Source: Pseudofrankia coriaricola
GTDB taxonomy: Bacteria > Actinomycetota > Actinomycetes > Frankiales > Frankiaceae
Assembly (NCBI RefSeq): GCF_001854805.1
Contig: NZ_MBLO01000114.1
Coordinates: 62,001 to 126,000, forward strand
DNA length: 64,000 bases
Reading direction: 5' to 3'
Part shown: positions 21,753 through 35,982 of the stretch, piece by piece
Layout: each line of letters begins with the position of its first letter
Numbering within the stretch: the stretch's first letter is position 1
Program-made: the position numbers and the translations under genes
Notes under the pieces: model-generated
The model's input: the letters and a program-made list of their open reading frames with translations, nothing else
The model's database searches: none
What the model was told of the DNA's origin: nothing

Positions 21753-21770
21753 ATGAGTCCCTGTGAGTAG
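21753..21770 (+). promoter_or_regulatory. Possible five-codon leader ORF overlapping the first cluster gene start
   Basis: ATG at 21753 with GAAGGA upstream reads MSPCE and stops at 21768-21770, overlapping the GTG (21763) of the transglutaminase-like gene. It may provide translational coupling for a gene with no ribosome site of its own. Could be chance. Confidence 0.3.
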
Positions 21771-22770
21771 GCAGACCCTCGAGGACCTGGGCCGCGGCCG
21801 CGCCGGTCAACCGGATCCCGGGTGGCGGCGCGCGCGGCTCGGTTTCGAGCCGACCCCGCCCGACCTGGCCGTCTTCGACACCACCCTCGCCGCCGCGGCC
21901 ACCGTGCTGTGCGCCGACGAGGCCGCGGTGGCCGCGCTCGGCCTTCCCCAGGTCGGTGGCCTGCTGGACTTCACGGACGTCGCCAACGCGGCGCTGCACT
22001 CCGGGACGGGCACCACACTGCCGGAAATGGCCAGGCGGCTGCTCATGCGGTTCGCGGCCGGCGAGCCCGACCGGTGGTACGCGCCTCTGGACTGGACGGT
22101 GGCGGTCCACCAGCCGCCCACCGGCGAGACCCTCCAGATGGCGGTGCCGGATCTGGACGCCGAGGGCGTGGAGCTCCTGGACGACCCGGCCGCCGACCAG
22201 CCGCGACCGGTCGTCCCGGATGGGCATCAGGCCGATCCGTACCAGGTGCGGGTCCGGCTGACCGGTGAGCGGTACGACGTCACCGACCGCCGGATCCACG
22301 CCGCGTTCGACGACGTTCTCGCGGCGCTCCACGGCGGCGCGGTGCACTACCAGGCGATCGCCGAGCCGCTGCGCGCCGACCACCGGCGGTCCTGGGAACT
22401 GGGTGTCGCCGACTGCGTCGTGGCCGGGAGGGTGCTCGCCGACCGGCTGCGGGCCGAGGGATTCCAGGCCAGGGCGCGCCGCGGCTTCCTGCTCGGCCTC
22501 ATCGGCAACGACCACGGCTGGTGCGAGGTTCACCTCGACGGCCAGTGGCGCCCGTTGGACCCCGTGTTCGCCTACCTCGCGGCCGAGCACGGTCGGGACA
22601 GCGCGGCGAGGTTCGAGACGGCCTGCCGCGGCGGCCGTTTCAACCGGGTGCTGCCGTGCGCGGTGGCCGAGTCGGCCGCGCTGTTCCTGTCGCCAGACGG
22701 CTCGCCCGCCCCGGCCTGGGCCGTCGCCGCCGTGTCCTCACGCCTGCGGCGCGCCGCCGCGCGGGCCTGA
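21763..22770 (+). CDS. Transglutaminase-like (papain-fold) enzyme, first gene of N-N biosynthetic cluster
   Basis: 335 residues. The C-terminal half carries a transglutaminase-like catalytic set: Cys218 in ELGVADCVVAGRVLADRLRAEGF, His251 in NDHGWCEVHLDGQW and Asp266 in RPLDPVF, the normal Cys-His-Asp order. The N-terminal half is unassigned. In secondary metabolism such folds form or cleave amides and thioesters on carrier proteins, so it may release or transfer the ACP-bound product here. No signal peptide. It lies 11 bases before the ferritin-like gene and on the same strand as the whole cluster. Fold assignment is good; reaction is inference. Confidence 0.75.
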   Translation: MSRQTLEDLGRGRAGQPDPGWRRARLGFEPTPPDLAVFDTTLAAAATVLCADEAAVAALGLPQVGGLLDFTDVANAALHSGTGTTLPEMARRLLMRFAAGEPDRWYAPLDWTVAVHQPPTGETLQMAVPDLDAEGVELLDDPAADQPRPVVPDGHQADPYQVRVRLTGERYDVTDRRIHAAFDDVLAALHGGAVHYQAIAEPLRADHRRSWELGVADCVVAGRVLADRLRAEGFQARARRGFLLGLIGNDHGWCEVHLDGQWRPLDPVFAYLAAEHGRDSAARFETACRGGRFNRVLPCAVAESAALFLSPDGSPAPAWAVAAVSSRLRRAAARA

Positions 22771-22781
22771 GGAGAATGGTC

Positions 22782-23891
22782 ATGGAGCCGGACACGATGG
22801 CGCGGCTGGCCGGGAACTGGGCCGTTCCGCTGGGTGGGGACGCGCTGTTCACCTGGGACTACAGCGCCGGCACCGAGCAGATGCTGGACCTGTACTCCCG
22901 CGGCAAACAGCGTCAGTGGGACGCCGAGCTGCGGCTGGACTGGAGCCACGACGTCGACCCGGACAACCCGCTCGGCCTGTCCGACGAGTTCGTCTGGATC
23001 GCCGGCTCGCCGGTGTGGGAGCGCCTGCCGGACGCGGAGCGGGTGACCGTCCGCCGGCACCTGGCTGGCTGGCTCTACTCACAGTTCCTGCACGGTGAGC
23101 AGGGCGCCCTGGTGTGCTCGGCGAAGGTCGTCCAGTCGGCGCCGGACATCGCCTCGAAGTTCTACGGCGCCACCCAGGTGATGGACGAGGCCAGGCACGT
23201 CGAGGCGTTCCAGCGCATGCTGCAGACCAAGATCAAGGTTGAGTATCCGATCTCGACGGCCCTGGGCGGCCTGCTCGAGACCATCATCGGGGACGGCCGG
23301 TGGGACATCACCTACCTCGGCATGCAGGTGATGATCGAGGGCCTCGCGCTGGCGTCGTTCAGCATCCAGCGCGACCGGATGCGCGATCCGCTGGCGCGGG
23401 CGCTCAACGCCTACGTGCTGCAGGACGAGGCGCGTCATGTCGCGTTCGGGCGGCTGGCGCTGCGTGACTACTACGGCCAGCTCAGCGCCGCCGAACTACG
23501 TGAGCGCGAGGACTTCGCGGCCGAGACGTGCTGGGTGCTCAAGGACCGGTTCACTGGCGAGGAGATGTGGCGCAACCTCGACCACGGCGCCGAGGAATGC
23601 ATCGCGGCGGCCAACCGCTCGCCGGCCCAGCGGGAGTTCCGGCGCCGGCTGTTCAGCCGGATCGTCCCGACGCTGAAGGACATCAACCTGTTCGGTCCCA
23701 GGATGCGGGAGACCCTGCGCGCGCTGGGCGTGCTCGGGTTCGGCAAGGTGGACGGGGCGGAGCTCTCCGCCGAGGACGAGCGGATCGCCGACGAGATCGC
23801 CGAGGCGGAGCTCGCCGCCCGGCGGCGGGAGGTCTCCTCGGCCGTCGCCCGCGGTGCCGGCCCCGCTGACGACGGCGAGGCCGCGGAATGA
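22782..23891 (+). CDS. Ferritin-like diiron oxygenase/oxidase
   Basis: 369 residues with a ferritin/RNR-R2-like four-helix bundle. Two E-x-x-H half-sites are visible (DEARHVE, Glu136/His139, and DEARHV, Glu216/His219), with additional ligands Glu106 (HGEQGAL) and Glu186 (MIEGLAL). This is the standard six-ligand diiron set. The ATG at 22782 is chosen for its GGAGA at a normal distance. It overlaps the SGNH gene by ATGA. Relatives act as N-oxygenases (AurF type), C-H oxygenases or long-chain oxidases. In a cluster that builds an N-N bond, oxidation of a hydrazine or hydrazone nitrogen is the attractive inference. Confidence 0.85.
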   Translation: MEPDTMARLAGNWAVPLGGDALFTWDYSAGTEQMLDLYSRGKQRQWDAELRLDWSHDVDPDNPLGLSDEFVWIAGSPVWERLPDAERVTVRRHLAGWLYSQFLHGEQGALVCSAKVVQSAPDIASKFYGATQVMDEARHVEAFQRMLQTKIKVEYPISTALGGLLETIIGDGRWDITYLGMQVMIEGLALASFSIQRDRMRDPLARALNAYVLQDEARHVAFGRLALRDYYGQLSAAELREREDFAAETCWVLKDRFTGEEMWRNLDHGAEECIAAANRSPAQREFRRRLFSRIVPTLKDINLFGPRMRETLRALGVLGFGKVDGAELSAEDERIADEIAEAELAARRREVSSAVARGAGPADDGEAAE

Positions 23892-24577
23892 CCGAGCCGA
23901 CCGAGGCCACCGACCCGTACGTCACCCCCACCGAGGCCGGCGTGCAGGTGCTGGCGGGCGCGCCGTGGAAGCGGATCGCCGTGATCGGCGACAGCATCTC
24001 CGCCGGAGTGCGCGAGGTCGTTCCCGGCTACCAGGACCTGTCCTGGGTGGACCGGATCAGCGCCGTGCTGCGCCGGATCCACCCCGACTTCGACGAGATA
24101 CGGCTAGCCCGGCGCGACGTGACGCTGGCCGAGATCCGCCGGGCGCAGCTGCCGCCCGCCCTGGACTTCGCGCCCGACCTGGTGTTCCTCTCGGGCGGGG
24201 GCAACGACTTCATCAGGCCGGGCTTCGACCCGGTCGTCGCCCGCGCCGAGCTCACCGAGATCGTCTCCGGGGTCCGGGGGAGCGGTGCCGACATCCTCAC
24301 CATCGGCATGCTCGACATCAGCCGGGCGGGCGTCGTCTCGGAGCGATTCGCGGGACCGATCGGCGAGGCGACGAGGATCCTCACCCGGATCACCCGCGAG
24401 GTGTCCCAGGAGCACGGCGCGATCTTCGTCTCGTTCACCGACCATCCGCTCTGCGCCGACCCGGGTCTCTACTGCGGCGACAAGCTGCACCTCAACTGCC
24501 GCGGCCAGGCCTTCGAGGCCACCGAGAAGATGTGCGCGCTCGCCGCCCACCTGGCCGCGAGGAGCCAGGTCTCATGA
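23888..24577 (+). CDS. Cytosolic SGNH/GDSL hydrolase
   Basis: 229 residues. SGNH blocks: GDSIS with Ser36, GGGND with Asn106, and the terminal Asp198-x-x-His201 in GDKLHLN. No signal peptide, so unlike most actinobacterial GDSL lipases it acts in the cytoplasm. It overlaps both neighbours by ATGA, which ties it to the biosynthetic cluster. Likely an esterase, thioesterase or acyltransferase acting on a pathway intermediate (for example product release or removal of a protecting group); the sequence cannot say which. Confidence 0.85.
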   Translation: MTEPTEATDPYVTPTEAGVQVLAGAPWKRIAVIGDSISAGVREVVPGYQDLSWVDRISAVLRRIHPDFDEIRLARRDVTLAEIRRAQLPPALDFAPDLVFLSGGGNDFIRPGFDPVVARAELTEIVSGVRGSGADILTIGMLDISRAGVVSERFAGPIGEATRILTRITREVSQEHGAIFVSFTDHPLCADPGLYCGDKLHLNCRGQAFEATEKMCALAAHLAARSQVS

Positions 24578-26709
24578 TCGACCCGACGACGTCGCTGCCG
24601 CCCGGGCCGCTCGAGTGCGGCCCGGCCGCCGCCGCGCAGGCGGCCGCGCTGGTCGCCGGGCCGCCGGGCGCGCTCTACCGGGTGCTGCTGGTCGAGCAGG
24701 AGTCCGAGGCGGCGCTGGTGGCCGCCCGCCGGGTGCTCGCCGCGTTCCTGCCGGATGGCGCGGGCCTGGACCGGGATCGGGTGCTCGCCGAGCTGGCCGA
24801 CGCCCGCGCCGCGATCGCGACGGCCGCCGCGCGGCTGCGCGCCGCGTCGGCGGAGACCCTGGCCGCCGTGCTGCGCGAGCGGGCCCCGCTCGCGCTGATC
24901 GAGGGCTGCTGGCTCGACGCCGTGTCGCAGCCGGCGACCCAGCCCGCCGTGATCGTCAACCGGCTGCTCGCCGAGCGACTGGAGATCCTGGGCCATGGCG
25001 TCGCCGAACACACCCTGGCCCAGCGCCGCCGCCGGCTGCTGGACGACCACGGCGTGCTGCTCCCCGGCCTGACGTCTCCCGACTTCCTGGCCGGGGCGCG
25101 GGCCCGGCCGCTCACCGCGGTGACAGGCGCCTTCTACCTGGCGCTGTCCCGGCTGCCGGCCACCTTCCTGCCGGAGGTGGTCGGCGCGCACTGCGCCTTC
25201 CGCGCACTGGGCACCGACACCGGCCTGTCCGGGATGAACGGCCCCGGGTACGACCCCGCGCCGCTGCTGTCGGAGTACCTGGCGCTCACCGAGCGGGCAC
25301 CCACGGGCCCGGCCGACAGGGCCCGGCTGCTCGCGGCCATCCAGCTCGTCGTGGGCCTGGAACGCGCGCACGTCGCCATGCTCGCCGAGCTCGCCGGCTG
25401 GCACGAGAGCCTCTCGCTCGACGACCGCATGGCGCTGATCGTCGCCAGGCACGCGCCGTACGCCGGCCGCCAGCACGACAACGTGCAAATCTCCGGTGTA
25501 GCGCTGCGCGATCTGCTCGCCGGCCCGGACTTCGACGCCGCGGCGCTCGTCCACCGCCTCCGCTCCGCCAGCCAGCTGAGACCGTCGCCGTCCGGCGGTT
25601 GCCGCTTCACCAGGGCGATCAGGTTCGGCGGACCGATGTTCGGGATCTTCGACGAGGTCGAGGCGCGCACGATCACGCGGTGGGCGTCGGCCGTTGCCAG
25701 CGGCGACGAACCACGCGCCACGCTCGCTCCCTGTACCGCGGGGGACGACGAGGCCGCCGCCTGGCGGCGCGCGCTCGTGGCCGCCGCTCCCGGCGACGTC
25801 GTCGTCGCCGAGCCGGCGGTTCTCGACGAACGCCGGTTCCTTTACCGCCTGGTCAACGTCGAGCGGTTCCCGGGCGTGCTGGCCGCGGCCAGGACCCGCG
25901 TCGAGCGGGTGCTCGCCCAGGCCGAGGCGCTGTTCGAGCTGGGCGCCGCCGGGCGCTACACCGACGCCACCTGGTTCGACTACAGCCCCGTGGCGCTGCG
26001 GCGACGGATGGACACCATCTACTGGACGAAGCTCGTCGAGCCGTTCCGGCCGCTGACCGACATCCCACCGCGGGACGAGGTGATCAACAACCAGAAGCGG
26101 TTCGCGCTGGGCAACCTCGTCGACGGCGCCTGCACACACCGGATCGGCGCTACCGGCCGTGACCGGCCTGGCGACGCCGCGCTGTTCGCGATCTACGCCG
26201 ACGAGATGGGCCGCGGAGACGTCGCCAAGAACCACATCACGCTGATCCACCAGGCCCTGGCCAGCATGGACATCCAGCTGCCGCACCTGCGCGCGCGGGA
26301 GTTCCTCACCCAGACCGAGCTGCCGGACCTGGGCTACCCCTACGCCACCTACCAGCTCAGCCTGGCGCTGTTCCCGGACTCCCACTACGAGGAGATCCTC
26401 GGCTACCACCTCGGCCTCGAGATGTTCGGCCTCGGCGAGCTACGGCTGCACGAGGTGCAGAAGCTGCGCCACCACCGTATGGACACCGCCTACGAGTCGG
26501 TGCACCTGTCGATCGACAACGTCTCGGCGGGCCACAGCCGCCAGGCGGCCGACCTGATAGTCGACCACCTCGACCACGTCGGCCGCGCCGCCGGTCCGGC
26601 CGCCGTCGAGCCAGCGTGGCGGCGGGTGTGGCGCGGCTACGCCTCGTTCGCGCTCTTCGTCGAGCCGCGGCTGGCCCGGCGCCTGCTCGCGGGGCGGGGG
26701 GCGCCGTGA
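24574..26709 (+). CDS. Haem-oxygenase-like diiron oxidase/oxygenase (HDO, Haem_oxygenas_2 type) with large N-terminal extension
   Basis: 711 residues. The C-terminal about 200 residues show an HDO metal pattern: Glu544 and His554 (DEMGRGDVAKNH), Glu616 (LGLEMFG), then His644, Asp648 and His654 (VHLSIDN and AGHSRQ). The spacings (E-x9-H, H-x3-D) resemble those I recall for SznF. The N-terminal about 500 residues are helical and unassigned, much larger than usual for a stand-alone HDO. The ATG overlaps the SGNH stop, and the gene ends overlapping the acyl-CoA dehydrogenase GTG. HDOs catalyse N-oxygenation, N-N formation, or C-C fragmentation; the role here is inferred to be N-oxidation. Confidence 0.75.
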   Translation: MIDPTTSLPPGPLECGPAAAAQAAALVAGPPGALYRVLLVEQESEAALVAARRVLAAFLPDGAGLDRDRVLAELADARAAIATAAARLRAASAETLAAVLRERAPLALIEGCWLDAVSQPATQPAVIVNRLLAERLEILGHGVAEHTLAQRRRRLLDDHGVLLPGLTSPDFLAGARARPLTAVTGAFYLALSRLPATFLPEVVGAHCAFRALGTDTGLSGMNGPGYDPAPLLSEYLALTERAPTGPADRARLLAAIQLVVGLERAHVAMLAELAGWHESLSLDDRMALIVARHAPYAGRQHDNVQISGVALRDLLAGPDFDAAALVHRLRSASQLRPSPSGGCRFTRAIRFGGPMFGIFDEVEARTITRWASAVASGDEPRATLAPCTAGDDEAAAWRRALVAAAPGDVVVAEPAVLDERRFLYRLVNVERFPGVLAAARTRVERVLAQAEALFELGAAGRYTDATWFDYSPVALRRRMDTIYWTKLVEPFRPLTDIPPRDEVINNQKRFALGNLVDGACTHRIGATGRDRPGDAALFAIYADEMGRGDVAKNHITLIHQALASMDIQLPHLRAREFLTQTELPDLGYPYATYQLSLALFPDSHYEEILGYHLGLEMFGLGELRLHEVQKLRHHRMDTAYESVHLSIDNVSAGHSRQAADLIVDHLDHVGRAAGPAAVEPAWRRVWRGYASFALFVEPRLARRLLAGRGAP

Positions 26710-27857
26710 GCCTGGACGCGGAACTGGTGGCGCTGCCGTTCTACGAGCAGCGGCACCGAGAGCTGGCCGAGTCGCTGCGCGGGTTCTGCGACACCCACCC
26801 GGAGCTCGTGGTGACGGCCCGCGCCGACGCGCCGGAGAAGTACGCCGCCCGCGTCCTGCGTGCGCTGGGGGCCGCGGGGCTGCTCGACCCCGCCGACCTG
26901 CGCAGCCTGTGCCTCATCAGGGAGGCTCTTGCCTACACCGAGGACCTGGCCGACTTCGCGTTCTCCATCCAGGTCCTCGCCGCCTGGCCGATCCGGCGCC
27001 ATGGCACCGACGAGCAGCGGCGGCGCTGGCTTCCCGGGATGGCGCGCGGCGAGCTGGCCGGTGCGTTCGCGCTGTCCGAGGAGCAGGCCGGCTCGGACGT
27101 CGGGGCACTCGCCCTGCGCGCCGTGCCCGAGGGCGACGGGTATGTCCTGGACGGGCACAAGACGTGGATCGCCGGCGCCGCGGGAGCCGACGTCTTCTGC
27201 GTGGTGGCCCGCACCGGCGAGGGCCCGGCCGCGCTGGGCCTGACCGCCCTGCTCGTGCCGGCCGGCACACGGGGGCTGCGGATCGAGCCGATCGACCTGG
27301 TCGCGCCGCGTGACATCGCCCGGTTGGAGTTCGACGGCTGCCGGGTCCCGGCCGACGCGGTGCTGGGCGCCCGTGGCGGCGGGTTCGTCGTGGCCATGGA
27401 ACTGCTCGAACGGTTCCGCCTCACCGTCGGCGCCGCGGCGCTCGGCTTCGCGCGCCGGGCCGCCGACGCCGCCCTGGTGAGGGCCCGGCAGCGGGCGGCG
27501 TACGGCGGGCGGCTGTTCGACCTGCCGACGGTGAAGGCCACCTTCGGCGACATCGAGGTAAGGCTCAACGCCGCCGCGCTCCTGGTGGCCAGGGCCGCCT
27601 GGGAGGCCGACCGGGGCGCCCCGCTGGCGAGGCACTCCAGCATCGCGAAGCTGTACGCCACCGAGGCCGCCCAGCAGGTCGTGGACGCCGCGGTGCAGGT
27701 GTACGGCGCGGCGGGGCTGGTGCGCGACAGCCTGCCCGAACGGCTGTACCGGCAGATCCGGTCGCTACGGATCTACGAGGGCGCCTCCGAGGTGCTGCGG
27801 CTAGCCGTCGCCGACGCGCTGGGGCCGCGCGGCCGGGACGGTGCGCTCGCCCGATGA
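26706..27857 (+). CDS. Acyl-CoA dehydrogenase-like flavoprotein
   Basis: 383 residues, normal family length. Seen are FALSEEQAGSDVGALALRA (FAD and substrate site), DGHKTWIAGA, and the C-terminal RIYEGASEVLRL with the catalytic-base glutamate position of the acyl-CoA dehydrogenase family. The GTG overlaps the previous stop (GTGA). In triacsin biosynthesis an enzyme of this class oxidises an ACP-bound acylated hydrazinoacetyl group to the hydrazone. With a ligase, an ACP and a GNAT in the same cluster, that is the most likely job here. The alternative is ordinary desaturation of an acyl-ACP. Confidence 0.9.
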   Translation: MSLDAELVALPFYEQRHRELAESLRGFCDTHPELVVTARADAPEKYAARVLRALGAAGLLDPADLRSLCLIREALAYTEDLADFAFSIQVLAAWPIRRHGTDEQRRRWLPGMARGELAGAFALSEEQAGSDVGALALRAVPEGDGYVLDGHKTWIAGAAGADVFCVVARTGEGPAALGLTALLVPAGTRGLRIEPIDLVAPRDIARLEFDGCRVPADAVLGARGGGFVVAMELLERFRLTVGAAALGFARRAADAALVRARQRAAYGGRLFDLPTVKATFGDIEVRLNAAALLVARAAWEADRGAPLARHSSIAKLYATEAAQQVVDAAVQVYGAAGLVRDSLPERLYRQIRSLRIYEGASEVLRLAVADALGPRGRDGALAR

Positions 27858-27886
27858 CACCGCCGGACCGTCCGGACCGCTACCCA

Positions 27887-27950
27887 CCCTGCCCACACCG
27901 CTCCCTGCCCACACCGCTCCCTGCCCGTAACACTCCCTGCCCGTAACACC
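27887..27950. repeat. Four tandem 16-bp repeats between the two halves of the cluster
   Basis: Units at 27887, 27903, 27919 and 27935: two copies of CCCTGCCCACACCGCT and then CCCTGCCCGTAACACT and CCCTGCCCGTAACACC. They occupy the only sizeable gap in the biosynthetic cluster, just after the acyl-CoA dehydrogenase stop. Possibly a slippage array or a spacer that splits transcription units. Confidence 0.9.
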
Positions 27951-28065
27951 CCTCTCCGTCCGCACCACCCCCCTTCGACGCCGGGTGGTCGGCGAACCCG
28001 CCGCCGGTCGACGTGACCGCGCTCGACGACCTGATCTCGCCAGACGCTGAAAGCGAGCTCTACTC

Positions 28066-29361: not shown

Positions 29362-30425
29362 TGGGCCAAGGGGCGTGCGATCATGGCGAAGCCGCGCGCC
29401 CGGAGGCCGCCGCCCAGGCGACGCCGACCGTGGACGCCGACATCGTGGTGGTCGGTGCCGGAGTGGTCGGCTGCCTGGTGGCCACCGAGGCGATGGCCCG
29501 CGAGCCCCGGCGGCGGGTGACGGTGATCGACAAGGGGCTGGTCGGGGGAGGGGCCTCCCGGTTCTCCGCCGGCCTGCACTTCCCCCGCGGGGCCTCCGCG
29601 CGGGTGCGGGCCATGGCCGCCTACAGCGGGCGCTGGTACGAGGAGCTGCGCCGGCGAGACCCACAGATGCCCATCCACCCGGTCGGCATGACCGTGGTCA
29701 GCGCCGACGAGGCCTCGGTCCGGGAGCACTATCTCGCCGAGGTCCGGCTGCGCCCGGTCGACGGCGGCTGGGACTGCGACGGGGCGCAGTACGCCGACGT
29801 CGGCGCGCTGACCCAGCTGCTGGCCGCCCGGCTGCGCGACCGGGTGACGATCCGTGAGGGCACGGCGGTCACCTCCGTGAGTCCGACCGCGGACGGCGTC
29901 GTTCTCACGCTGGGCACCGGCGCGCGGCTCACCGCCAGCCGGGTCGTGCTGGCGCCCGGCCCCTGGCTCGCCTGGCCGGAGCTGCTCGCCCCGCTCGGCA
30001 TCCGCGTCAAGAAGGTCGTCGCCCTGCACGTCGAACGACCCGCCTCCCTGACTGACCGCGCGACCGTCTTCCACGACGAGGACGCGTTCCTGCTCCCGCT
30101 CGCCCACCGTCGCCACTGGCTGTTCAGCTACACCTCGACCGACTGGGACGTCACACCCGACGCGCTGGCCGGCGGGCTGTCCGCCGAAGACCTCGACCGC
30201 GGTCGGGCGCTCCTGGCGCACCACGCCCCGGCGCTGCGCCCGCACTGCGTCTCGGGCCGGGTCTTCTGCGACGCGTACAGCCCTGACCGTGCGCCGATCG
30301 TGCGCCCGATCACCGCCGACGGCCGGGTGATGTTCGCCGGGGCGGCGGGCGGTTCCGGCTACCGGCTGGCCCCCGCGATCGCCGCCGAGTGCGCCGACTG
30401 GCTCGACGAGGAGGACAGTGCATGA
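29361..30425 (+). CDS. DAO-type FAD-dependent amine oxidase (hydrazine-releasing step)
   Basis: 354 residues of the glycine-oxidase/D-amino-acid-oxidase family: dinucleotide motif VVVGAGVVGCLVATEA near residue 30, the GGGASRFSAGLHFPRG loop, and the C-terminal SPDRAPIVRPI and FAGAAGGSGYRLAPAIA FAD contacts. In the s56-p1 and triacsin pathways the homologous enzyme oxidatively cleaves the lysine-glycine hydrazine to free hydrazinoacetic acid. The first about 23 residues are an unconserved extension, encoded by a diverged copy of the same repeat that is duplicated in the ACP gene. The stop overlaps the next ATG (ATGA). Confidence 0.9.
   Translation: MGQGACDHGEAARPEAAAQATPTVDADIVVVGAGVVGCLVATEAMAREPRRRVTVIDKGLVGGGASRFSAGLHFPRGASARVRAMAAYSGRWYEELRRRDPQMPIHPVGMTVVSADEASVREHYLAEVRLRPVDGGWDCDGAQYADVGALTQLLAARLRDRVTIREGTAVTSVSPTADGVVLTLGTGARLTASRVVLAPGPWLAWPELLAPLGIRVKKVVALHVERPASLTDRATVFHDEDAFLLPLAHRRHWLFSYTSTDWDVTPDALAGGLSAEDLDRGRALLAHHAPALRPHCVSGRVFCDAYSPDRAPIVRPITADGRVMFAGAAGGSGYRLAPAIAAECADWLDEEDSA
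29363..29407 (+). repeat. Diverged copy of the ATGGCGAAGCC repeat
   Basis: The start of the oxidase gene (around GCGTGCGATCATGGCGAAGC, then CGGAGGC) resembles the 45-base element found twice in the ACP gene at 33968 and 34028, with the same core ATGGCGAAGCC and CCGGAGGC. It codes the non-conserved N-terminal extension of the oxidase. Confidence 0.55.
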
Positions 30426-32410
30426 TCATCGAGCGCTATGACGCCGCCGCGCTCTCCCAGGCCTTCGGGATCGACATGGCCTCGGTCGACGGGCTGGGCT
30501 CCGCCGCCGCCTGGGGCCGCGTCGCGCCCCACAGCGTCTCGATGCACCACCGGCACGACGAGACCGAGCTGATCGTCGTCGTCGCCGGCCGCGGTGAGGT
30601 CGTCGTGGGCGCGGGGCACCACCCGGTCGAGGCGGGTACCGCCCTGCTGTTCGAACCGTTCGAGGACCACGTCGTGCGCAACACGGGGGACCGGGATCTG
30701 GTCTTCCTCAGCCAGTACTGGCGCGACGGCGCCCGCGCGGTGTCCTCGGCCGCGCCGGTGACCAGCGAGCATCGCGGCCGGCCGGTGTTCGTCTTCTCGA
30801 CGCCGCCCACCCCGAACGGCGACCTTCACCTCGGCCACCTCGCCGGGCCCTACCTGGGCGCCGACGTCTACGTCCGGTTCCAGCGGATGCACGGCGCCCG
30901 CGTCTGGCACCTGACGGGCAGCGACGACTTCCAGTCCTACGTGGTCGACCGCGCTCGCCGGGAAGGCAGGTCGAACGCCGAGACGGCGGCGCACTACAGC
31001 GCCGAGATCGCGGAAACCCTGCGGCTGATGGACATCTCGCCCGACCAGTACACCGCGACGAGCACCGACCCCACCTACGTCCCCGTGCTGAGGGACTTCT
31101 TCACCGGGCTGGTCGAGCGCGGCGCGATCGCCGCGGCGGACGGCCCCGCGCTGTTCGACCCGCGGACCGGCCAGTACCTCTACGAGGTGGACGTCCGCGG
31201 CCGCTGCCCCGGCTGCGGCCAGACCACCGGCGGCAACATCTGCGAGGAGTGCGGCGAGCCGAACACCGTGGCCGACCTGGCCGACCCGGTCGCCGCGCCG
31301 TCCGGCCAGGCACCGACCGCCGGCACGGCCCGTCGCTACCTGCTCGGGCTGCACGAGCACGCCGGCACGGTGCTCGACCACCACCGCCGGGGCCGCGTCC
31401 CGGCCCGGTTGCGGGAGCTCGCCGCGCGGCTGTTCCGCCGGGAACGCATCGACCTCCCCGTGAGCCACCCCAGCGACTGGGGCGTCACCCCGCGCGAGGC
31501 GGACGGCGCCGGCCAGGTGATCTGGGTGTGGCCGGAGATGGCCTTCGGTTTCCTGTATGGCATCCAGAAGCTGGGCGAGCGGCTCGGCCACGGCTGGACG
31601 GCAGCCGAGCCGGCCGACGACTGGAAGATCGTCCATTTCTTTGGCTACGACAACAGCTTCTACCACGCGATTCTCTACCCGGTGCTCTACCGGCTCGCCC
31701 TGCCCGGCTGGACACCGGACATCGACTACCACGTCAACGAGTTCCTCCTCTACGACGGCCAGAAGTTCTCGACCAGCCGCCGGCACGCCATCTGGGGCAA
31801 GCAGATCCTCGACGCCGACAGCGTGGACGCCGTGCGGTACTTCCTCGCCCGTAACCGCCCCGAAGTGGAGCGGACGAACTTCACGCTCGCCGACTACGAA
31901 CACACGCTGTCGACCAGCCTGATCGGTACCTGGCAGTCCTGGCTGAACGACCTCGGCTGGCGGGTCGCCGACCGCCACGGCGGTGTGGCGCCCGACGCCG
32001 GCAACTGGACGCCCGAGCACGCCGGGTTTCTCGGCCGGCTGGAGGCCCGGCTCCGCGCGCTCACCGCCAGCCTGCGGCCCGGCGGGTTCTCCCTCAACCA
32101 GGCCGCCGCCGAACTGGACGCGCTGGTGGCGGACGCGTCGCGGTTCAGCCGCGCGGAGGATGGGCTGGCGCGGGCCGGCGGCATGCCGGACGAGACGCGC
32201 ACGGCCACGGCGCTCGAGCTGGCCGCCGCCGCGCTGCTCGCGCGCGGCGCCGCGCCGGTGATGCCGCGCTTCGCCGGCCGGCTGGCCGAGGCCCTCGGCC
32301 AGCCGCCGCCCGACCGGTGGCCGAGCACCGTCGAGCTGATACCGCCGGGCAGCAAGCTCACCCTCGCCGACGCCACGTTCTTCCGCCCGACCAGCGGGAA
32401 CCTCTCGTGA
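30422..32410 (+). CDS. Cupin-methionyl-tRNA-synthetase-like fusion: hydrazine synthetase
   Basis: 662 residues. Residues 1-100 are a cupin with His43, His45, Glu49 and His83 as metal ligands (MHHRHDETE and EDHVVRN). Residues about 120-660 are MetRS-like: class I HLGH at 136-139 (TPPTPNGDLHLGHLAGPYLG), a zinc knuckle with Cys262, 265, 274 and 277, and a KMSKS variant KFSTS at 448-452. This two-domain architecture is that of Spb40/Tri28-type hydrazine synthetases. They activate an amino acid (glycine in known cases), esterify the hydroxylamine of N6-hydroxylysine and rearrange it to an N-N bond. It is flanked by the matching hydroxylase and oxidase, overlapping by ATGA, so it is not a housekeeping MetRS. 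Confidence 0.94.
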   Translation: MIIERYDAAALSQAFGIDMASVDGLGSAAAWGRVAPHSVSMHHRHDETELIVVVAGRGEVVVGAGHHPVEAGTALLFEPFEDHVVRNTGDRDLVFLSQYWRDGARAVSSAAPVTSEHRGRPVFVFSTPPTPNGDLHLGHLAGPYLGADVYVRFQRMHGARVWHLTGSDDFQSYVVDRARREGRSNAETAAHYSAEIAETLRLMDISPDQYTATSTDPTYVPVLRDFFTGLVERGAIAAADGPALFDPRTGQYLYEVDVRGRCPGCGQTTGGNICEECGEPNTVADLADPVAAPSGQAPTAGTARRYLLGLHEHAGTVLDHHRRGRVPARLRELAARLFRRERIDLPVSHPSDWGVTPREADGAGQVIWVWPEMAFGFLYGIQKLGERLGHGWTAAEPADDWKIVHFFGYDNSFYHAILYPVLYRLALPGWTPDIDYHVNEFLLYDGQKFSTSRRHAIWGKQILDADSVDAVRYFLARNRPEVERTNFTLADYEHTLSTSLIGTWQSWLNDLGWRVADRHGGVAPDAGNWTPEHAGFLGRLEARLRALTASLRPGGFSLNQAAAELDALVADASRFSRAEDGLARAGGMPDETRTATALELAAAALLARGAAPVMPRFAGRLAEALGQPPPDRWPSTVELIPPGSKLTLADATFFRPTSGNLS

Positions 32411-33909
32411 TCAACGAGCTCCTGGCGTCCACGCCGGACCGCGGGACCCTGCACATCAGCAGGCTGGCCGGCACCCGCGAGGTCCCGCTCGCCGAGGTCT
32501 GGCGGTTGTCCGGTCTGGTCGCGGCCGGCCTGCGTGCCCGCGGCCTCGGCGCGGGCGACCGGATCGGCATCCTCGGCGCCAACAGCCTCGAATGGGTAGT
32601 GCTCGACCTGGCCGCCCTGCGCAGCAAGGTCGAGACCGCCGGCCTGGAACCAGGCAAGTTCATGCCCACGCGCGAGCTCATGCGCCGCTACGGCCTGTCC
32701 CTCCTCTTCACCGACCGGCCGTGCGACGAGCCCGGCGTCGAGCAGCTCGGGACGCTGCTCGACGACCTGACCGACCTGACCGGCGCGGCGCAACCGGCGC
32801 CGGCGACGTACGCCCCGGACGAGGTCACCACGATCAAGTTCACCTCGGGAAGCACCGGCACACCCAAGGGCCTGGGCGCCACCATCGGCAGCGTCGACAG
32901 TTCGCTGAACGCCGTCCAGGACATGTTCGGCCATGGCCCCGGCGACAACCTGCTCGTGTTCCTGCCGTTGTCGTTGCTCCAGCAGCGCTACTGGGTGTAC
33001 TCGGCGCTGCGGTACGGCCATGACGTGACGGTGTGCACCTACGAGGCGGCCTTCGCGGCGCTCACCCAGGTACGCCCGACCGTCGTGATGGGCGTGCCCG
33101 GCTTCTTCGAGGGCGCCCGCAGCCAGATCGAGCGCCGCGCCCGGCGCACCGGCCTGGACCTCGCCGAGGTGGCTCGCGACCTGTTCGGCGACCGCATCCG
33201 CTACCTGTGGACCGGCTCGGCCCCCGCCGATCCCGCCACCCTCGCCTTCTTCAACCGGCTCGGGCTGCCGATCTACGAGGGCTACGGTCTCAACGAGACC
33301 TGCATCGTGGCCAAGAACCACCCGGCGGCGCACCGCGAGGGCAGCGTGGGCCGGGTGCTGCCGGGCAAGCAGGTGATCGTCGACGACGACGGGGTCATCC
33401 ACGTGCGCGCCGAGCACCCGGTGAACCGGCGGTACGCCTACTGCGAGCCCGGCGACTCCGAACGCGTCTTCGGCCCTGATGGCACGGTCCGCACCGGCGA
33501 CCTCGGATATCTCGACCCCGACGGCTTCCTTTTCATCCTCGGCCGCGCCGATGACACGATCGTGCTCGACAACGGCAAGAAAGTCATTGTCCGGCAGATC
33601 GAGGAACACCTGAAGGCCAGCCCGGCCATCGCGGAATGCGTGCTCTACTGCCCCGCCCAGACGGAGCTGGTGGCGGTCGTCTCGCCCGCGTCGGCGCCGG
33701 CGGACACGGCCGCCATTTCGGCGCAGCTCACGGCCACGAACCGCGCGCTCAGCGGTGACCAGTACATCCACCGCGTCGTGGTGGCCGACGAGCCGTTCAG
33801 CATCGACAACGGCCTGCTCACCTCGCAGTACAAGCCCAGGCGGAAGCAGATCCGGGCGCGCTACCTGCGCGAGATCGGCGACCCGAGGAAGGGAATCCAT
33901 GCTGCCTGA
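32407..33909 (+). CDS. Acyl-AMP ligase (AMP-binding enzyme) loading the cluster ACP
   Basis: 500 residues of the ANL adenylating family. A3 motif FTSGSTGTPKG near residue 150, A5 YEGYGLNET, A7 RTGDLGYLDPDG, hinge ILGRADDTIVLDNGKKV and the terminal catalytic-lysine region YKPRRKQI are all present. The GTG overlaps the hydrazine-synthetase stop. The gene overlaps the ACP start by 11 bases, so the two are a natural ligase-carrier pair. Likely substrate: an N-acylated hydrazinoacetic acid, as in triacsin biosynthesis (inference). No condensation or ketosynthase domain is attached. Confidence 0.92.
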   Translation: MINELLASTPDRGTLHISRLAGTREVPLAEVWRLSGLVAAGLRARGLGAGDRIGILGANSLEWVVLDLAALRSKVETAGLEPGKFMPTRELMRRYGLSLLFTDRPCDEPGVEQLGTLLDDLTDLTGAAQPAPATYAPDEVTTIKFTSGSTGTPKGLGATIGSVDSSLNAVQDMFGHGPGDNLLVFLPLSLLQQRYWVYSALRYGHDVTVCTYEAAFAALTQVRPTVVMGVPGFFEGARSQIERRARRTGLDLAEVARDLFGDRIRYLWTGSAPADPATLAFFNRLGLPIYEGYGLNETCIVAKNHPAAHREGSVGRVLPGKQVIVDDDGVIHVRAEHPVNRRYAYCEPGDSERVFGPDGTVRTGDLGYLDPDGFLFILGRADDTIVLDNGKKVIVRQIEEHLKASPAIAECVLYCPAQTELVAVVSPASAPADTAAISAQLTATNRALSGDQYIHRVVVADEPFSIDNGLLTSQYKPRRKQIRARYLREIGDPRKGIHAA

Positions 33910-34324
33910 CCCAGCCAAAGACGCTCCCCCAAAGATCGGCTGGCGCCGATCTTTGGGGACCCCGGCGGCGACAATGGCGAAGCCTTGCGCGGCCGGAGGC
34001 GTACCAGCCGACCCAGCCAAAGGCCGCGCGACAATGGCGAAGCCTTGCGCGGCCGGAGGCGTGCCAGCCGACATCGAGGCCGCGGCCCGGGAGAACCTGG
34101 CGGCGGTGCTGACGTTCGACGTCGCCCCCGCCGACCTGGCGAGCGACGTCGACCTGACCGGCACCTATGGGCTCACCTCACTGAACAAGGTTCTTTTCCT
34201 GACCTCGCTGTGCAGGGACACGGGCGTCGACATCGCGCGCCTCACCGAGGACGATCTGGCGGGAATGCACACGCTGCGCGACTGCGTGGACATCCTGTCG
34301 CCGCACCTTCCGGCCGGGACCTGA
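33899..34324 (+). CDS. Acyl carrier protein with repeat-derived N-terminal extension
   Basis: The carrier domain is residues about 58-141 (IEAAARENLAAVLTFDV, then DLTGTYGLTSLNKVLFL). Ser94 in GLTSLNK sits at the phosphopantetheine position, with Thr in place of the usual Asp. The first about 57 residues are not ACP-like: they are coded by a perfect 14-bp-arm hairpin and two copies of a 45-base repeat, giving ATMAKPCAAGGVPAD twice. Translation may start at ATG 33899 (overlapping the ligase end) or at the internal ATG 34034, which would give a normal about 96-residue ACP. It presumably carries the hydrazinoacetyl/hydrazonoacetyl group. Confidence 0.85.
   Translation: MLPDPAKDAPPKIGWRRSLGTPAATMAKPCAAGGVPADPAKGRATMAKPCAAGGVPADIEAAARENLAAVLTFDVAPADLASDVDLTGTYGLTSLNKVLFLTSLCRDTGVDIARLTEDDLAGMHTLRDCVDILSPHLPAGT
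33927..33958. repeat. Perfect hairpin in the 5' part of the ACP gene
   Basis: Arms CCCCAAAGATCGGC and GCCGATCTTTGGGG (14 bp, no mismatch) around the loop TGGC, just after the ligase stop. It could be an inserted palindromic element, an attenuator, or an RNA-processing/stability site that alters ligase to ACP stoichiometry. Confidence 0.9.
33968..34072 (+). repeat. Two direct copies of a 45-bp element, 60-bp period
   Basis: Copies at 33968-34012 and 34028-34072 differ at one base. Each begins GCGACAATGGCGAAGCCTTG and ends CCAGCCGAC. The 15-base linker GCCAAAG-type sequence also occurs before the hairpin at 33911. The period is a multiple of three, so the ACP frame is preserved. Confidence 0.95.
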
Positions 34325-34327
34325 CCG

Positions 34328-34927
34328 GTGGCCTGGAGCACGGACGGTCCGGCCGTCCTGGGTAACGACCATGTCCGCCTCGCGCCCGTCACCGAGCCCG
34401 ACCGGGAACCATTGCGGGCGATCGCCCTTGACCCGGACATCTGGCGGTACTTCGTGTCCCGGGTGGAATCCGACCCCGACTTCGACGCGTTCTTCGACGC
34501 CACGCTGGCCGATCACCGAGCCGGCCGGCGATGTGTCTTCGTCATCACCGACAGGCGCACCGGCCGGGCCGCGGGCAGCATGAGCTACGGCAACCTGTCC
34601 GAACCGGACTCCAGGCTGGAGATCGGCTGGTCCTGGCTCGGCCGCGACTTCCGCGGCGCGGGGATCAACCGGTGGGCCAAGTTGCTGCTGCTGGAGCACG
34701 CCTTCGAACGCCTGGGCGCGTTGCGGGTGGAGTTCAAGACCGACGTGCTCAACACCCAGGCCCGGCGCGGCCTACGCAACATCGGCGCCGTCGAGGAGGG
34801 CGTGCTCCGCAGCTACAACCCCATGCCGGACGGGCGCCGCCGCGACGCGGTCTACTACAGCGTCCTGGCCGAGGAATGGCCGAGCCTGAAGAAGACACTC
34901 AGCGAGCACCCGAAGGTGCGCCCGTGA
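34328..34927 (+). CDS. GNAT-family N-acyltransferase
   Basis: 199 residues, RimJ/RimL-like GNAT: LRLAPVT-type start (VRLAPVTEPDREPLRAI), the acyl-CoA pyrophosphate-loop region GWSWLGRDFRGAGINRWAKLLLL and the helix after it, then RVEFKTDVLNTQARRGLRNIGAVEEG, typical of N-terminal or amine acetyltransferases. In triacsin biosynthesis a GNAT succinylates hydrazinoacetate as temporary protection before loading on the ACP; a similar role is inferred here. A self-resistance acetyltransferase is the alternative. It starts three bases after the ACP stop, and its own stop overlaps the next GTG. Confidence 0.88.
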   Translation: MAWSTDGPAVLGNDHVRLAPVTEPDREPLRAIALDPDIWRYFVSRVESDPDFDAFFDATLADHRAGRRCVFVITDRRTGRAAGSMSYGNLSEPDSRLEIGWSWLGRDFRGAGINRWAKLLLLEHAFERLGALRVEFKTDVLNTQARRGLRNIGAVEEGVLRSYNPMPDGRRRDAVYYSVLAEEWPSLKKTLSEHPKVRP

Positions 34928-35982
34928 CGGTGCTGGTCAGGGCCGACGGGGAGCCGGCGGAGCTGGGCAGGGCTCACGGGGCGGCACTCGCGGGCCGGCT
35001 GCGGTCGTTCATCGACGACGACGCCTGCCGGCTTGGCCGGCTGCTCCCCGAGCCGGTGACGGTCGACGGCCTGCGCCCGACGATCGCCCGGTACCGCGCC
35101 CAGATCGAGCGCGCCACACCGCGGCTCGCCGAGGAGGTCGCCGGGCTCGCGGCCGGCGCCGGCCTGGACGAGGACGAGGCCTGGCTGCTCCAGCTTCGAC
35201 GCGAGATCCTCGGCTACACCAAGATCCCCACCTCGGGAGACTGCACCACCTACGCGCGGGACGCCGGCCCTCTGCTCGCCCAGACCCCTCTGCTCGCCCA
35301 GACCCCTCTGCTCGCCCAGACCGTCGACCTCAACGGCGGCCTGGACGACCAGATCGCCGTGCTCGACCTCGCCTCGCCGATCGGCCGCTCGCTCGTGCTG
35401 AGCTTCGGGGGCCTGCTCGGATACCTCGGCCTCAACAGCCGCGGCCTCGCCGTCGGGCTCAACCTCGTCCTCGGCGGCGACTGGCGGGCAGGCCTGCCCC
35501 CGTACCTGGCGATCCGGCACCTTCTCGACACGGCGGCGAGCGTCGAGGAAGCACTCGACGTCCTGGGCGGTCTGCGGCTGGCTAGCTCGCGGTCGCTGAC
35601 CCTCTGCGATGCCACCCAGGCCGTCTGTGTGGAGATCCTCGGAGACGAGCAGCGGACCATGCGGGCGCCACAGACCGTGCACACCAACCACTTCCTGCAC
35701 CCGGACCTCGCCGCCCACGACGAGATCAACGTGTTCGCCCGCAACTCCTCCGTCCGCCGGCTCGAGGCGGCCAGGGCGGCGCTCGCGAGCGCGGGGACGG
35801 AGCCCGAGGAGCACCTGGCGCTGCTGTCCGCACCGCCGATCCGAGTACCGGACAGCCGCGACATCCGGCGCGAGCGCACGGTCGCGGCGGCGGTCCTGCT
35901 GCCGGGGCTTGGCGAACTACGCCTTCGGCCCGGTGACCCCGCGCTGTCCACGACCGAGACATTCCGGCTGGAGCGGCGGTAG
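34924..35982 (+). CDS. C45-type Ntn hydrolase (acyl-CoA:6-APA acyltransferase/IAT family)
   Basis: 352 residues. The predicted autocatalytic nucleophile is Cys107 in TSGDCTTYARDAGPLLAQT, at the normal depth for C45 proenzymes, followed by LNGGLDDQIAVLDL and the GLLGYLGLNSRGLAVGLNLV strand region. Such enzymes hydrolyse or transfer acyl groups on amines. Here it may remove the GNAT-installed acyl group (the amidase step of triacsin biosynthesis is done by an unrelated hydrolase, as I recall) or transfer the product acyl. The hexapeptide PLLAQT is triplicated right after the nucleophile by an 18-bp tandem repeat. Last gene of the cluster. Confidence 0.85.
   Translation: MTVLVRADGEPAELGRAHGAALAGRLRSFIDDDACRLGRLLPEPVTVDGLRPTIARYRAQIERATPRLAEEVAGLAAGAGLDEDEAWLLQLRREILGYTKIPTSGDCTTYARDAGPLLAQTPLLAQTPLLAQTVDLNGGLDDQIAVLDLASPIGRSLVLSFGGLLGYLGLNSRGLAVGLNLVLGGDWRAGLPPYLAIRHLLDTAASVEEALDVLGGLRLASSRSLTLCDATQAVCVEILGDEQRTMRAPQTVHTNHFLHPDLAAHDEINVFARNSSVRRLEAARAALASAGTEPEEHLALLSAPPIRVPDSRDIRRERTVAAAVLLPGLGELRLRPGDPALSTTETFRLERR
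35269..35322 (+). repeat. Three perfect 18-bp tandem repeats in the Ntn hydrolase gene
   Basis: CCTCTGCTCGCCCAGACC occurs at 35269, 35287 and 35305 without mismatch, coding PLLAQT three times. Family members normally have one such strand (GPLLxQ) after the nucleophilic Cys, so two copies are an in-frame expansion. Confidence 0.95.

What the first reader, a model, noticed from the sequence alone, without database searches (positions are those of the whole stretch)
21763..35982. Compact gene cluster for an N-N bonded natural product, with hydrazine-synthetase core and two diiron enzymes
Seen: twelve genes on one strand, most overlapping by 4 bp, encoding lysine N-hydroxylase, DAO-type oxidase, cupin-MetRS fusion, acyl-AMP ligase, ACP, GNAT, acyl-CoA dehydrogenase, Ntn hydrolase, ferritin-like diiron protein, HDO protein, transglutaminase-like protein and SGNH hydrolase. 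Known: the first three make hydrazinoacetic acid in the s56-p1 and triacsin pathways. In triacsin biosynthesis a GNAT, ligase, ACP and acyl-CoA dehydrogenase then yield the hydrazonoacetyl unit, and azaserine is built from a similar unit. Inferred: the two diiron enzymes oxidise this unit further, to a diazo, azoxy or related group. No NRPS or PKS module is present, so the final product should be very small. I do not know a described cluster with this exact set.
Basis: partly seen in the sequence, partly recalled or inferred. Interest (0 to 1): 0.92.

Follow-up and report, generated by a model that had tools for sequence, protein, structure and literature searches.

The report
Hydrazone gene cluster missing two genes
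This Frankia-family bacterium carries a compact gene set that builds a nitrogen–nitrogen (hydrazone) unit; the same set, with two extra acid-loading genes that are lost here, recurs in other Frankia-family, Nocardia and Actinomadura strains and its product is unknown, so it is a real but partly eroded member of a cluster type that has been named but not characterised.

Summary
In detail: twelve same-strand genes at 21763–35982, including all eight homologues of the azaserine/DOBA hydrazonoacetyl cassette. The gene order recurs in nine other genomes (three Frankiaceae, four Nocardia, two Actinomadura), including N. ninae, where it is probably the uncharacterised "nin" cluster of a 2026 Nature paper. 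All nine begin with two more genes, a fatty-acyl-AMP ligase (FAAL) and a second carrier protein (ACP2). The window has lost both and keeps only decayed relics at 21268–21814. Some relatives also adjoin a PUFA-type PKS. So "no assembly line, very small product" misreads the family.

The 711-aa HDO is a close relative (56%) of azaserine's HDO. The ferritin-like protein has no detectable similarity to the hydrazone oxidase Dob3, lacks the seventh histidine of N-oxygenases, belongs to a widespread family, and occurs with ligase, ACP2 and transglutaminase-like genes in a cluster without hydrazine genes.

Best reading: hydrazonoacetyl-ACP, probably N-oxidised by the HDO, is joined to an acyl chain by the transglutaminase-like enzyme; the ferritin-like enzyme likely acts on the acyl partner. 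In the window strain the genes that load the acyl partner are missing.

The parts
21268..21343 (+). Relic of the region just upstream of the lost FAAL gene (promoter-proximal)
   Evidence: 75% identity over 76 bp to the stretch upstream of the CcI3 FAAL gene (L107:2902-2828), E 8e-9
21680..21762 (+). Relic of the 3' end of the deleted FAAL (ligase 2) gene, frameshifted
   Evidence: blastn 74% with indels to the CcI3 FAAL C-terminus; the same stretch is 90-92% between CcI3 and Protofrankia
21763..21837 (+). Relic of the 5' end of the deleted second carrier-protein gene (ACP2), now fused in frame to the TG-like gene
   Evidence: GTGAGTAGGCAGACCCTCGAGGAC aligns with the ACP2 start ATGAGTATGCAGACCGTCGAGGAC of CcI3; ACP2 absent from G000, present in 5 of 5 relatives
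21838..22770 (+). Transglutaminase-like protein (homologous part)
   Evidence: PF01841; C/H/D triad invariant; AF2 pLDDT 72.8, Foldseek best hits TGase-like/cysteine-protease folds E 2e-5, GdmF amide synthase lower down
22776..23891 (+). Ferritin-like diiron protein (FDO), not Dob3-like
   Evidence: PF11583; six putative ligands E108, E138, H141, E188, E218, H221, Val214 where Dob3 has the seventh His; no BLAST similarity to Dob3
23888..24577 (+). SGNH/GDSL hydrolase
   Evidence: PF13472; S36, N106, D198, H201 invariant in 7 orthologues
24574..26709 (+). 711-aa protein with C-terminal HDO domain, azaserine-type (AzsE/NngH relative)
   Evidence: PF14518 at 531-688; 56% to the azs HDO over its length; HDOs of this cluster type form one clade, support 97/99
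26706..27857 (+). Acyl-ACP dehydrogenase (AzsF/DobM/Tri22 homologue)
   Evidence: PF00441/PF02770/PF02771; 62% to azs homologue, 64% to dob homologue
28066..29361 (+). Lysine N6-hydroxylase (AzsL/DobG homologue)
   Evidence: PF13434 1e-83; 61% to azs homologue
29430..30425 (+). FAD-dependent DAO-type oxidase (AzsM/DobF type)
   Evidence: PF01266; 55% to azs homologue
30422..32410 (+). Cupin-MetRS hydrazine synthetase, 662 aa, without the C-terminal carrier domain of AzsN
   Evidence: PF07883 + PF09334; 66% to AzsN (764 aa) over 1-655
32407..33909 (+). AMP ligase 1 (AzsP/DobC homologue)
   Evidence: PF00501; 65% to azs homologue
34061..34324 (+). Carrier protein 1 (AzsQ/DobQ homologue)
   Evidence: 56% to the azs carrier protein, 51% to dob
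34328..34927 (+). GNAT, HAA succinyltransferase type (AzsS/DobB)
   Evidence: PF13302; 69% to azs, 73% to dob homologue
34924..35982 (+). C45-type Ntn hydrolase (AzsT/DobA, desuccinylase)
   Evidence: NF040521 above cut-off; Cys107 invariant; carries a 12-aa in-frame repeat expansion nearby

Best explanation
The locus is a member of a conserved, uncharacterised hydrazone cluster type ('nin-type'), and the window copy has lost the two genes that load its acyl partner. Intact pathway: (1) N6-hydroxylysine and glycine are joined by the cupin-MetRS enzyme and cleaved by the DAO oxidase to hydrazinoacetic acid; the GNAT succinylates it, ligase 1 loads it on ACP1, and the dehydrogenase and C45 hydrolase give hydrazonoacetyl-ACP1 (by homology to characterised enzymes; ~0.9). 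(2) The azaserine-type HDO N-oxidises the hydrazone, before or after condensation, towards a diazo or N-nitroso/nitramine-level group (inferred; ~0.6). (3) The FAAL loads an acyl chain on ACP2 (in Protofrankia and Nocardia perhaps from the adjacent PUFA-type PKS), the ferritin-like enzyme oxidises that acyl partner (inferred; ~0.55), and the transglutaminase-like Cys-His-Asp enzyme acts as the condensation catalyst in place of an NRPS, as AdmF does in andrimid (inferred; ~0.5). (4) The SGNH hydrolase trims or releases the product (inferred; ~0.4). In the window strain FAAL and ACP2 are gone, so it either makes a shorter product, borrows an acyl-ACP from another locus, or no longer makes the compound.
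For: Full cassette with 55-69% identity to the azs cluster and 51-73% to the dob cluster, whose enzymes were reconstituted (PMC10445470, PMC13061610, PMC12154687). Conserved order FAAL-ACP2-tgl-fdo-sgnh-hdo-acad...ntn in relatives, with P450 and saccharopine-DH-like genes inserted in Actinomadura. Ligase 2 is FAAL-type (NF006624, 320 bits; best PDB hit 3pbk fatty acyl-adenylate ligase). PKS with AT, ACPs, KR, FabA-like DH and PfaD-like domains upstream in Protofrankia and Nocardia. Ligase-ACP2-tgl-FDO without hydrazine genes in G723 (L184): a separable module. HDO clade and AzsE relationship. Relics of FAAL and ACP2 in the window and no orthologues elsewhere in the genome.
Against: No enzyme of this cluster type has been assayed. 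The TG-like assignment rests on a sub-threshold Pfam hit, a conserved triad and a medium-confidence model. The AF2 model of the ferritin-like protein failed (pLDDT 41). In the window strain the twelve remaining genes show dN/dS 0.19-0.44 against CcI3, no higher than CcI3 against Protofrankia, which argues that the shortened cluster still does something useful without FAAL/ACP2. CcI3 and Actinomadura have no PKS next to the FAAL, so the acyl partner is undefined.
Confidence: 0.55

Rival explanations
1. One reading: both diiron enzymes act in series on the hydrazonoacetyl unit and the cluster makes a very small diazo/azoxy compound without any acyl partner; in the window strain the FAAL/ACP2 pair is dispensable.
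For: FDO-fold enzymes can oxidise hydrazones (Dob3, PMC13061610) and hydrazines (VlmB); a VlmB homologue is among the few weak PDB hits of the FDO profile (6d9f, E 0.0012). The twelve genes stay under purifying selection although FAAL/ACP2 decayed. NNG needs two metalloenzymes after hydrazone formation (PMC13274452).
Against: The FDO has no detectable similarity to Dob3, lacks the seventh His, and its ~50% identical relatives are common in Actinomycetota (51 of 396 genomes; 182 of 300 in one family). It occurs with ligase, ACP2 and tgl where no hydrazine gene is present. FAAL and ACP2 are present in 9 of 9 other loci.
Confidence: 0.2
2. The window copy is a decaying, non-producing remnant: loss of FAAL and ACP2 removed an essential building block, and the remaining genes are on the way out. 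(A claim about this copy only; compatible with the best explanation for the family.)
For: Relics of both genes; slight excess of unique replacements in the window lineage (71 vs 52 and 58), most visible next to the deletion (tgl 6/3/3, fdo 10/6/8, sgnh 6/1/3); 12-aa repeat expansion in the Ntn hydrolase.
Against: All twelve reading frames are intact, catalytic residues are kept, dN/dS is low, and the relic divergence (18.5% substitutions in 124 aligned bases against about 11% in the neighbouring tgl coding DNA) does not look brand-new.
Confidence: 0.3
3. It is simply an azaserine, N-nitroglycine, triacsin or DOBA cluster variant making one of those known products.
For: Same hydrazonoacetyl cassette and, for azaserine/NNG, the same HDO type.
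Against: No homologue of the azs NRPS (only the shared AMP-ligase similarity), KASIII, thioesterase or P450 in the cluster; cupin-MetRS lacks the AzsN carrier domain; no Dob2 PKS or Dob3 homologue.
Confidence: 0.05

Closest known systems
'nin' cluster of Nocardia ninae (named, not characterised; Pfeifer et al. 2026, PMC13061610)
   Same: N. ninae contig sequence100 (L050) carries tgl-fdo-sgnh-hdo-acad-lysNOH-dao-cupMetRS-ligase-acp-gnat-ntn in the same order, proteins 51-72% identical; the other HYAA locus found in that genome (L052) is dob
   Different: N. ninae also has FAAL and ACP2 upstream; the window lacks both. L050 = nin is by elimination; the paper's supplementary figure was not readable here
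Azaserine cluster (azs/aza)
   Same: All eight cassette genes and the ~700-aa C-terminal-HDO protein (AzsE), 55-69% identity
   Different: No NRPS AzsO, KASIII AzsD, thioesterase AzsB, P450 AzsG, saccharopine DHs or AzsN carrier domain; adds tgl, FDO, SGNH (and in relatives FAAL, ACP2)
N-nitroglycine cluster (nng), S. noursei L076
   Same: HYAA cassette and HDO NngH (54% to the window HDO)
   Different: nng uses an NRPS and P450 NngS; neither is here
DOBA/diazoacetone cluster (dob), N. ninae L052
   Same: HYAA cassette; one AurF-family protein
   Different: Dob3 has the seven-ligand motif and no sequence similarity to this FDO; Dob2 PKS is absent here; no HDO, tgl or SGNH homologue was found in L052
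AdmF of andrimid (transglutaminase homologue as condensation catalyst, Fortin et al. 2007, doi 10.1038/nature06068, cited via PMC5216899)
   Same: A TG-like protein with a Cys-His-Asp triad beside free-standing ligases and carrier proteins
   Different: Function here untested; no AdmF sequence was available for comparison

Membership tests
Hydrazonoacetyl (HYAA) cassette pathways | Lys N-hydroxylase, DAO oxidase, cupin-MetRS, AMP ligase, ACP, GNAT, acyl-ACP dehydrogenase, C45 hydrolase together | tested here: met
   All eight present in one run, 55-69% to azs
Hydrazonoacetyl (HYAA) cassette pathways | Cupin-MetRS actually forms the N-N bond with glycine | not testable with these tools
   Conserved motifs and 66% identity to AzsN only
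Azaserine biosynthesis | NRPS AzsO (Cy-A-CP) and KASIII AzsD | tested here: not met
   tblastn of both against the window and the 62 kb upstream on the contig: only ligase cross-similarity
Azaserine biosynthesis | AzsE-type HDO of ~700 aa | tested here: met
   56% over the full length
Azaserine biosynthesis | C-terminal carrier domain on the cupin-MetRS protein | tested here: not met
   662 aa versus 764 aa; match ends at AzsN residue 666
DOBA (dob) biosynthesis | Dob3-type FDO hydrazone oxidase with seventh His | tested here: not met
   BLASTP E = 0.54; Val214 at the His position in 9 of 9 orthologues
DOBA (dob) biosynthesis | Dob2 type I PKS (TE-KS-AT-ACP) | tested here: not met
   no tblastn hit
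nin-type clusters (grouping made here) | Ordered tgl-fdo-sgnh-hdo joined to the HYAA cassette | tested here: met
   10 genomes including the window; HDO monophyletic 97/99 in the subset tested
nin-type clusters (grouping made here) | FAAL and ACP2 immediately upstream of tgl | tested here: not met
   Deleted in the window, relics only; present in all nine others
AdmF-like condensing transglutaminase homologues | TG fold with Cys-His-Asp triad | tested here: met
   Triad invariant; TG-like fold by Foldseek on a medium-confidence model
AdmF-like condensing transglutaminase homologues | Catalyses amide formation between two carrier-bound substrates | not testable with these tools
   needs an enzyme assay

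The most novel reading that the evidence does not exclude
A transglutaminase-like enzyme joins an FAAL-loaded acyl chain, oxidised by the ferritin-like enzyme, to a carrier-bound hydrazonoacetyl unit that an azaserine-type HDO oxidises, giving a lipid-tailed diazo or other N-N compound by an NRPS-free route in Frankia-family bacteria, Nocardia and Actinomadura, while the window lineage has shed the acyl-loading genes and kept a selected, shortened version of the pathway.
Probability: 0.25. Interest if true: 0.8.

Novelty: new variant of a known kind. Interest (0 to 1): 0.55.

Why it matters
N-N natural products such as azaserine and the DOBA diazo compounds are reactive and hard to find by normal isolation, and their biosynthetic enzymes are wanted as biocatalysts. 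This cluster type combines the hydrazone cassette and azaserine's still-unassigned HDO with an NRPS-free set of FAAL, carrier protein and transglutaminase-like enzyme, so it offers a clean place to test what the HDO does and whether a transglutaminase homologue can build an N-N compound. It is also found in Frankia-family bacteria; a full-text search for Frankia plus hydrazine listed no paper on such a pathway. The finding that the window copy has lost two genes present in every relative warns against predicting its product from this copy alone.

Tried and rejected
AlphaFold of the ferritin-like protein failed (pLDDT 41), so no fold comparison was made for it. PDB searches with the HDO and TG-like profiles gave no sequence hit. 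An azaserine, NNG, triacsin or DOBA product was considered and rejected because their condensing enzymes are missing (triacsin PKS genes were not tested directly). Dob3 homology of the FDO was tested and rejected. An assembly artefact as the cause of the missing FAAL/ACP2 was considered; a simple deletion in assembly would leave clean ends, whereas the relics carry substitutions and frameshifts, but no reads were available. A trans-acting replacement was looked for: two paralogous FAAL-thioesterase-ACP-methyltransferase loci exist in the genome (40-45% FAAL identity) but they are not orthologues. Supplementary files of the Nature 2026 paper could not be read, so Extended Data Fig. 5 and the nin gene map were not checked.
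Full report
WHAT IS THERE. Six of eleven junctions overlap by 4 bp; the others are gaps of 3-208 bp. The genome belongs to the same family as G024, whose contig 106 has the same length (114,152 bp) as the Protofrankia coriariae contig NZ_JWIO01000007.1, so it is a member of Frankiaceae. G003 has a single 5,433,628-bp contig, which from memory is the size of Frankia casuarinae CcI3; that name is inferred, not shown by a record title. The window's own genus is neither of these and is probably Pseudofrankia (inference).

THE CASSETTE. Lys N-hydroxylase, DAO oxidase, cupin-MetRS, AMP ligase, ACP, GNAT, acyl-ACP dehydrogenase and C45 hydrolase are all present and 55-69% identical to the azaserine-type cluster on the S. 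lavendulae plasmid pSA3239 and 51-73% to dob in N. ninae. Homologous enzymes have been reconstituted: AzsS/P/T/F make hydrazonoacetyl-AzsQ (PMC10445470) and DobB/C/M/A/Q make hydrazonoacetyl-DobQ (PMC13061610, PMC12154687). This part of the reading is well supported by homology.

THE CLUSTER TYPE. tblastn of the window proteins shows the same twelve genes in the same order in the CcI3-like genome and two Protofrankia genomes (mostly 64-90% identity). The one genome-wide scan for the cupin-MetRS protein kept 80 of 356 loci. The FDO and SGNH genes occur in six of the 80: P. coriariae, Nocardia ninae, N. inohanensis, N. uniformis, Actinomadura flavalba and A. sp. KC06, and all six also have the HDO; tgl lies beyond the locus edge in the two Actinomadura and was found. 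A fourth Nocardia (G471, L187) has the set too. N. ninae has two such hydrazone loci among those fetched: L052 is dob, with the PKS and Dob3 (Dob3 carries the His four residues before its second ExxH); L050 is this type. The Nature 2026 paper reports two clusters in N. ninae, dob and an uncharacterised 'nin', so L050 is nin by elimination. The same paper counted five new architectures among 129 mined clusters and labels FDO and HDO genes in Extended Data Fig. 5; the figure itself could not be read. The architecture is therefore known to exist, with no product assigned.

TWO MISSING GENES. In all nine other loci the gene immediately 5' of tgl is a second carrier protein (77-79 aa; PF00550 in the one tested) and before it an AMP ligase. 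The ligase is FAAL-type: best NCBIfam model 'fatty acyl-AMP ligase' at 300-322 bits (below that model's 600-bit cut-off), best PDB sequence hit 3pbk, fatty acyl-adenylate ligase, 1e-60. In the window only remnants exist: 76 bp upstream of the FAAL start at 75% identity (21268-21343) and a 136-column stretch spanning the FAAL 3' end and ACP2 5' end at 74% with 12 gaps (21680-21814), where CcI3 and Protofrankia share 90-92%. The annotated tgl start at 21763 is the old ACP2 start, fused in frame. ACP2 is absent from the window genome while the same search finds it in five of five relatives; the best FAAL in the genome is 43% identical and lies in a different FAAL-thioesterase-ACP-methyltransferase locus. 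In P. coriariae and in N. uniformis and N. inohanensis PUFA-synthase-like PKS parts (AT, ACP domains, KR, FabA-like DH, PfaD-like protein) with acyl-CoA-carboxylase-like genes lie just upstream; G027's short contig shows the carboxylase-like gene there, CcI3 has kdp-like genes and Actinomadura an MFS transporter.

IS THE SHORT VERSION ALIVE? All twelve frames are open, dN/dS against CcI3 is 0.19-0.44, no higher overall than CcI3 against Protofrankia, and lineage-specific replacements are 71 (window), 52 and 58. The relic divergence (23 substitutions in 124 aligned bases) is above that of the neighbouring tgl coding DNA (25 in 221), so the loss does not look brand-new, though the estimate rests on few bases. 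The window HDO branch is the longest of the three Frankiaceae HDOs (0.18 vs 0.06 and 0.15), and its Ntn hydrolase has a perfect three-copy 18-bp repeat adding about 12 residues near the catalytic Cys. The evidence leans towards a still-selected short version but does not settle it. Cluster dS between genera (mostly 0.2-0.35) is well below recA dS (0.55-0.79), so the cluster probably moved between Frankiaceae genera by horizontal transfer.

THE TWO DIIRON ENZYMES. The 711-aa HDO matches AzsE over its length (56%), the same layout reported for AzsE with an HDO at the C-terminus; HDOs of seven nin-type clusters form one clade next to azaserine and NNG HDOs (support 97/99). In NNG an HDO (NngH) is needed after hydrazone formation (citing He and co-workers), so hydrazone N-oxidation is the best guess for this HDO. 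The ferritin-like protein is different. It has no BLAST similarity to Dob3 (E 0.54); it has the six ferritin-type ligands by motif but Val at the seventh-His position that the Dob3 paper calls characteristic of FDO N-oxygenases. Its family is widespread: 51 of 396 sampled Actinomycetota genomes and 182 of 300 in the Actinomadura family have a member, mostly ~50% identical; three such loci inspected, including a paralogue in the window genome, show none of the cluster's core genes nearby. At 62-63% identity it sits in lipid-like clusters with ACPs, FAAL and desaturase-like genes (L182, L183), and in G723 (L184) it sits with AMP ligase, ACP2 and tgl without any hydrazine gene. This points to action on a carrier-bound acyl partner. 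The weak PDB hits of its profile are aldehyde-deformylating oxygenases and a VlmB homologue, which leaves N-oxidation open.

THE CONDENSING STEP. With no NRPS, the TG-like protein is the best candidate to join the two halves. Its Cys-His-Asp residues are invariant in seven orthologues, its model (pLDDT 72.8) matches transglutaminase-like folds first and arylamine N-acyltransferases and the geldanamycin amide synthase lower down, and it is adjacent to ACP2 in every intact locus. Precedent: the AdmF transglutaminase homologue in andrimid (Fortin et al. 2007, reference listed in PMC5216899) and a TG-like gene in butuanimide biosynthesis (PMC13151354). This is an inference.

VERDICT. Observation confirmed; the N-N interpretation holds; the claims that both diiron enzymes act on the N-N unit and that the product must be very small are not supported for the cluster family. 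The locus is a new variant, lacking FAAL and ACP2, of a recognised but uncharacterised cluster type.

Noticed in passing
35268-35322: Perfect three-copy 18-bp repeat (PLLAQT x3) in the C45/Ntn hydrolase, shortly after the conserved Cys; most relatives have one copy.
   Followed up: partly
33910-34060: The 151-bp gap between ligase 1 and ACP1 contains repeated GACAATGGCGAAGCCTTGCGCGGCCGGAGGCG units (sequence); relatives have almost no gap there.
   Followed up: no
16253-19464: Type I restriction-modification hsdM and hsdS-like genes directly upstream of the cluster.
   Followed up: no
L184 (G723:C133:9000-28900): Cluster with AMP ligase, ACP2-like, TG-like and ferritin-like genes plus aminotransferase- and amine-oxidase-like genes but no hydrazine genes: an orphan cluster using the same module.
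   Followed up: partly
L182, L183: Two related lipid-type clusters in the Actinomadura family with a 62-63% identical ferritin-like protein, two ACPs, FAAL, desaturase-like and cyclopropane-synthase-like genes.
   Followed up: no
L201 (G000:C54:22000-36000) and L202 (G000:C243:143000-160000): Two paralogous FAAL-thioesterase-ACP-methyltransferase loci in the window genome, each next to ABC-transporter-like genes; possible trans source of acyl-ACP.
   Followed up: partly
L021 (Sinorhizobium meliloti pMl3): HYAA cassette plus azaserine-type HDO and an NRPS on a conjugative Sinorhizobium plasmid; its acyl-CoA dehydrogenase is annotated as two pieces.
   Followed up: no
L035 and L041 (Actinomadura), 4.2-7.6 kb: nin-type clusters with a P450 and two saccharopine-dehydrogenase-like genes inserted, as in azaserine clusters.
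   Followed up: no
L017 (G019:C30:76000-95900): A different set with separate Lys N-hydroxylase, cupin, DAO and MetRS-like genes at 32-37% identity, possibly another hydrazine pathway in the same family.
   Followed up: no
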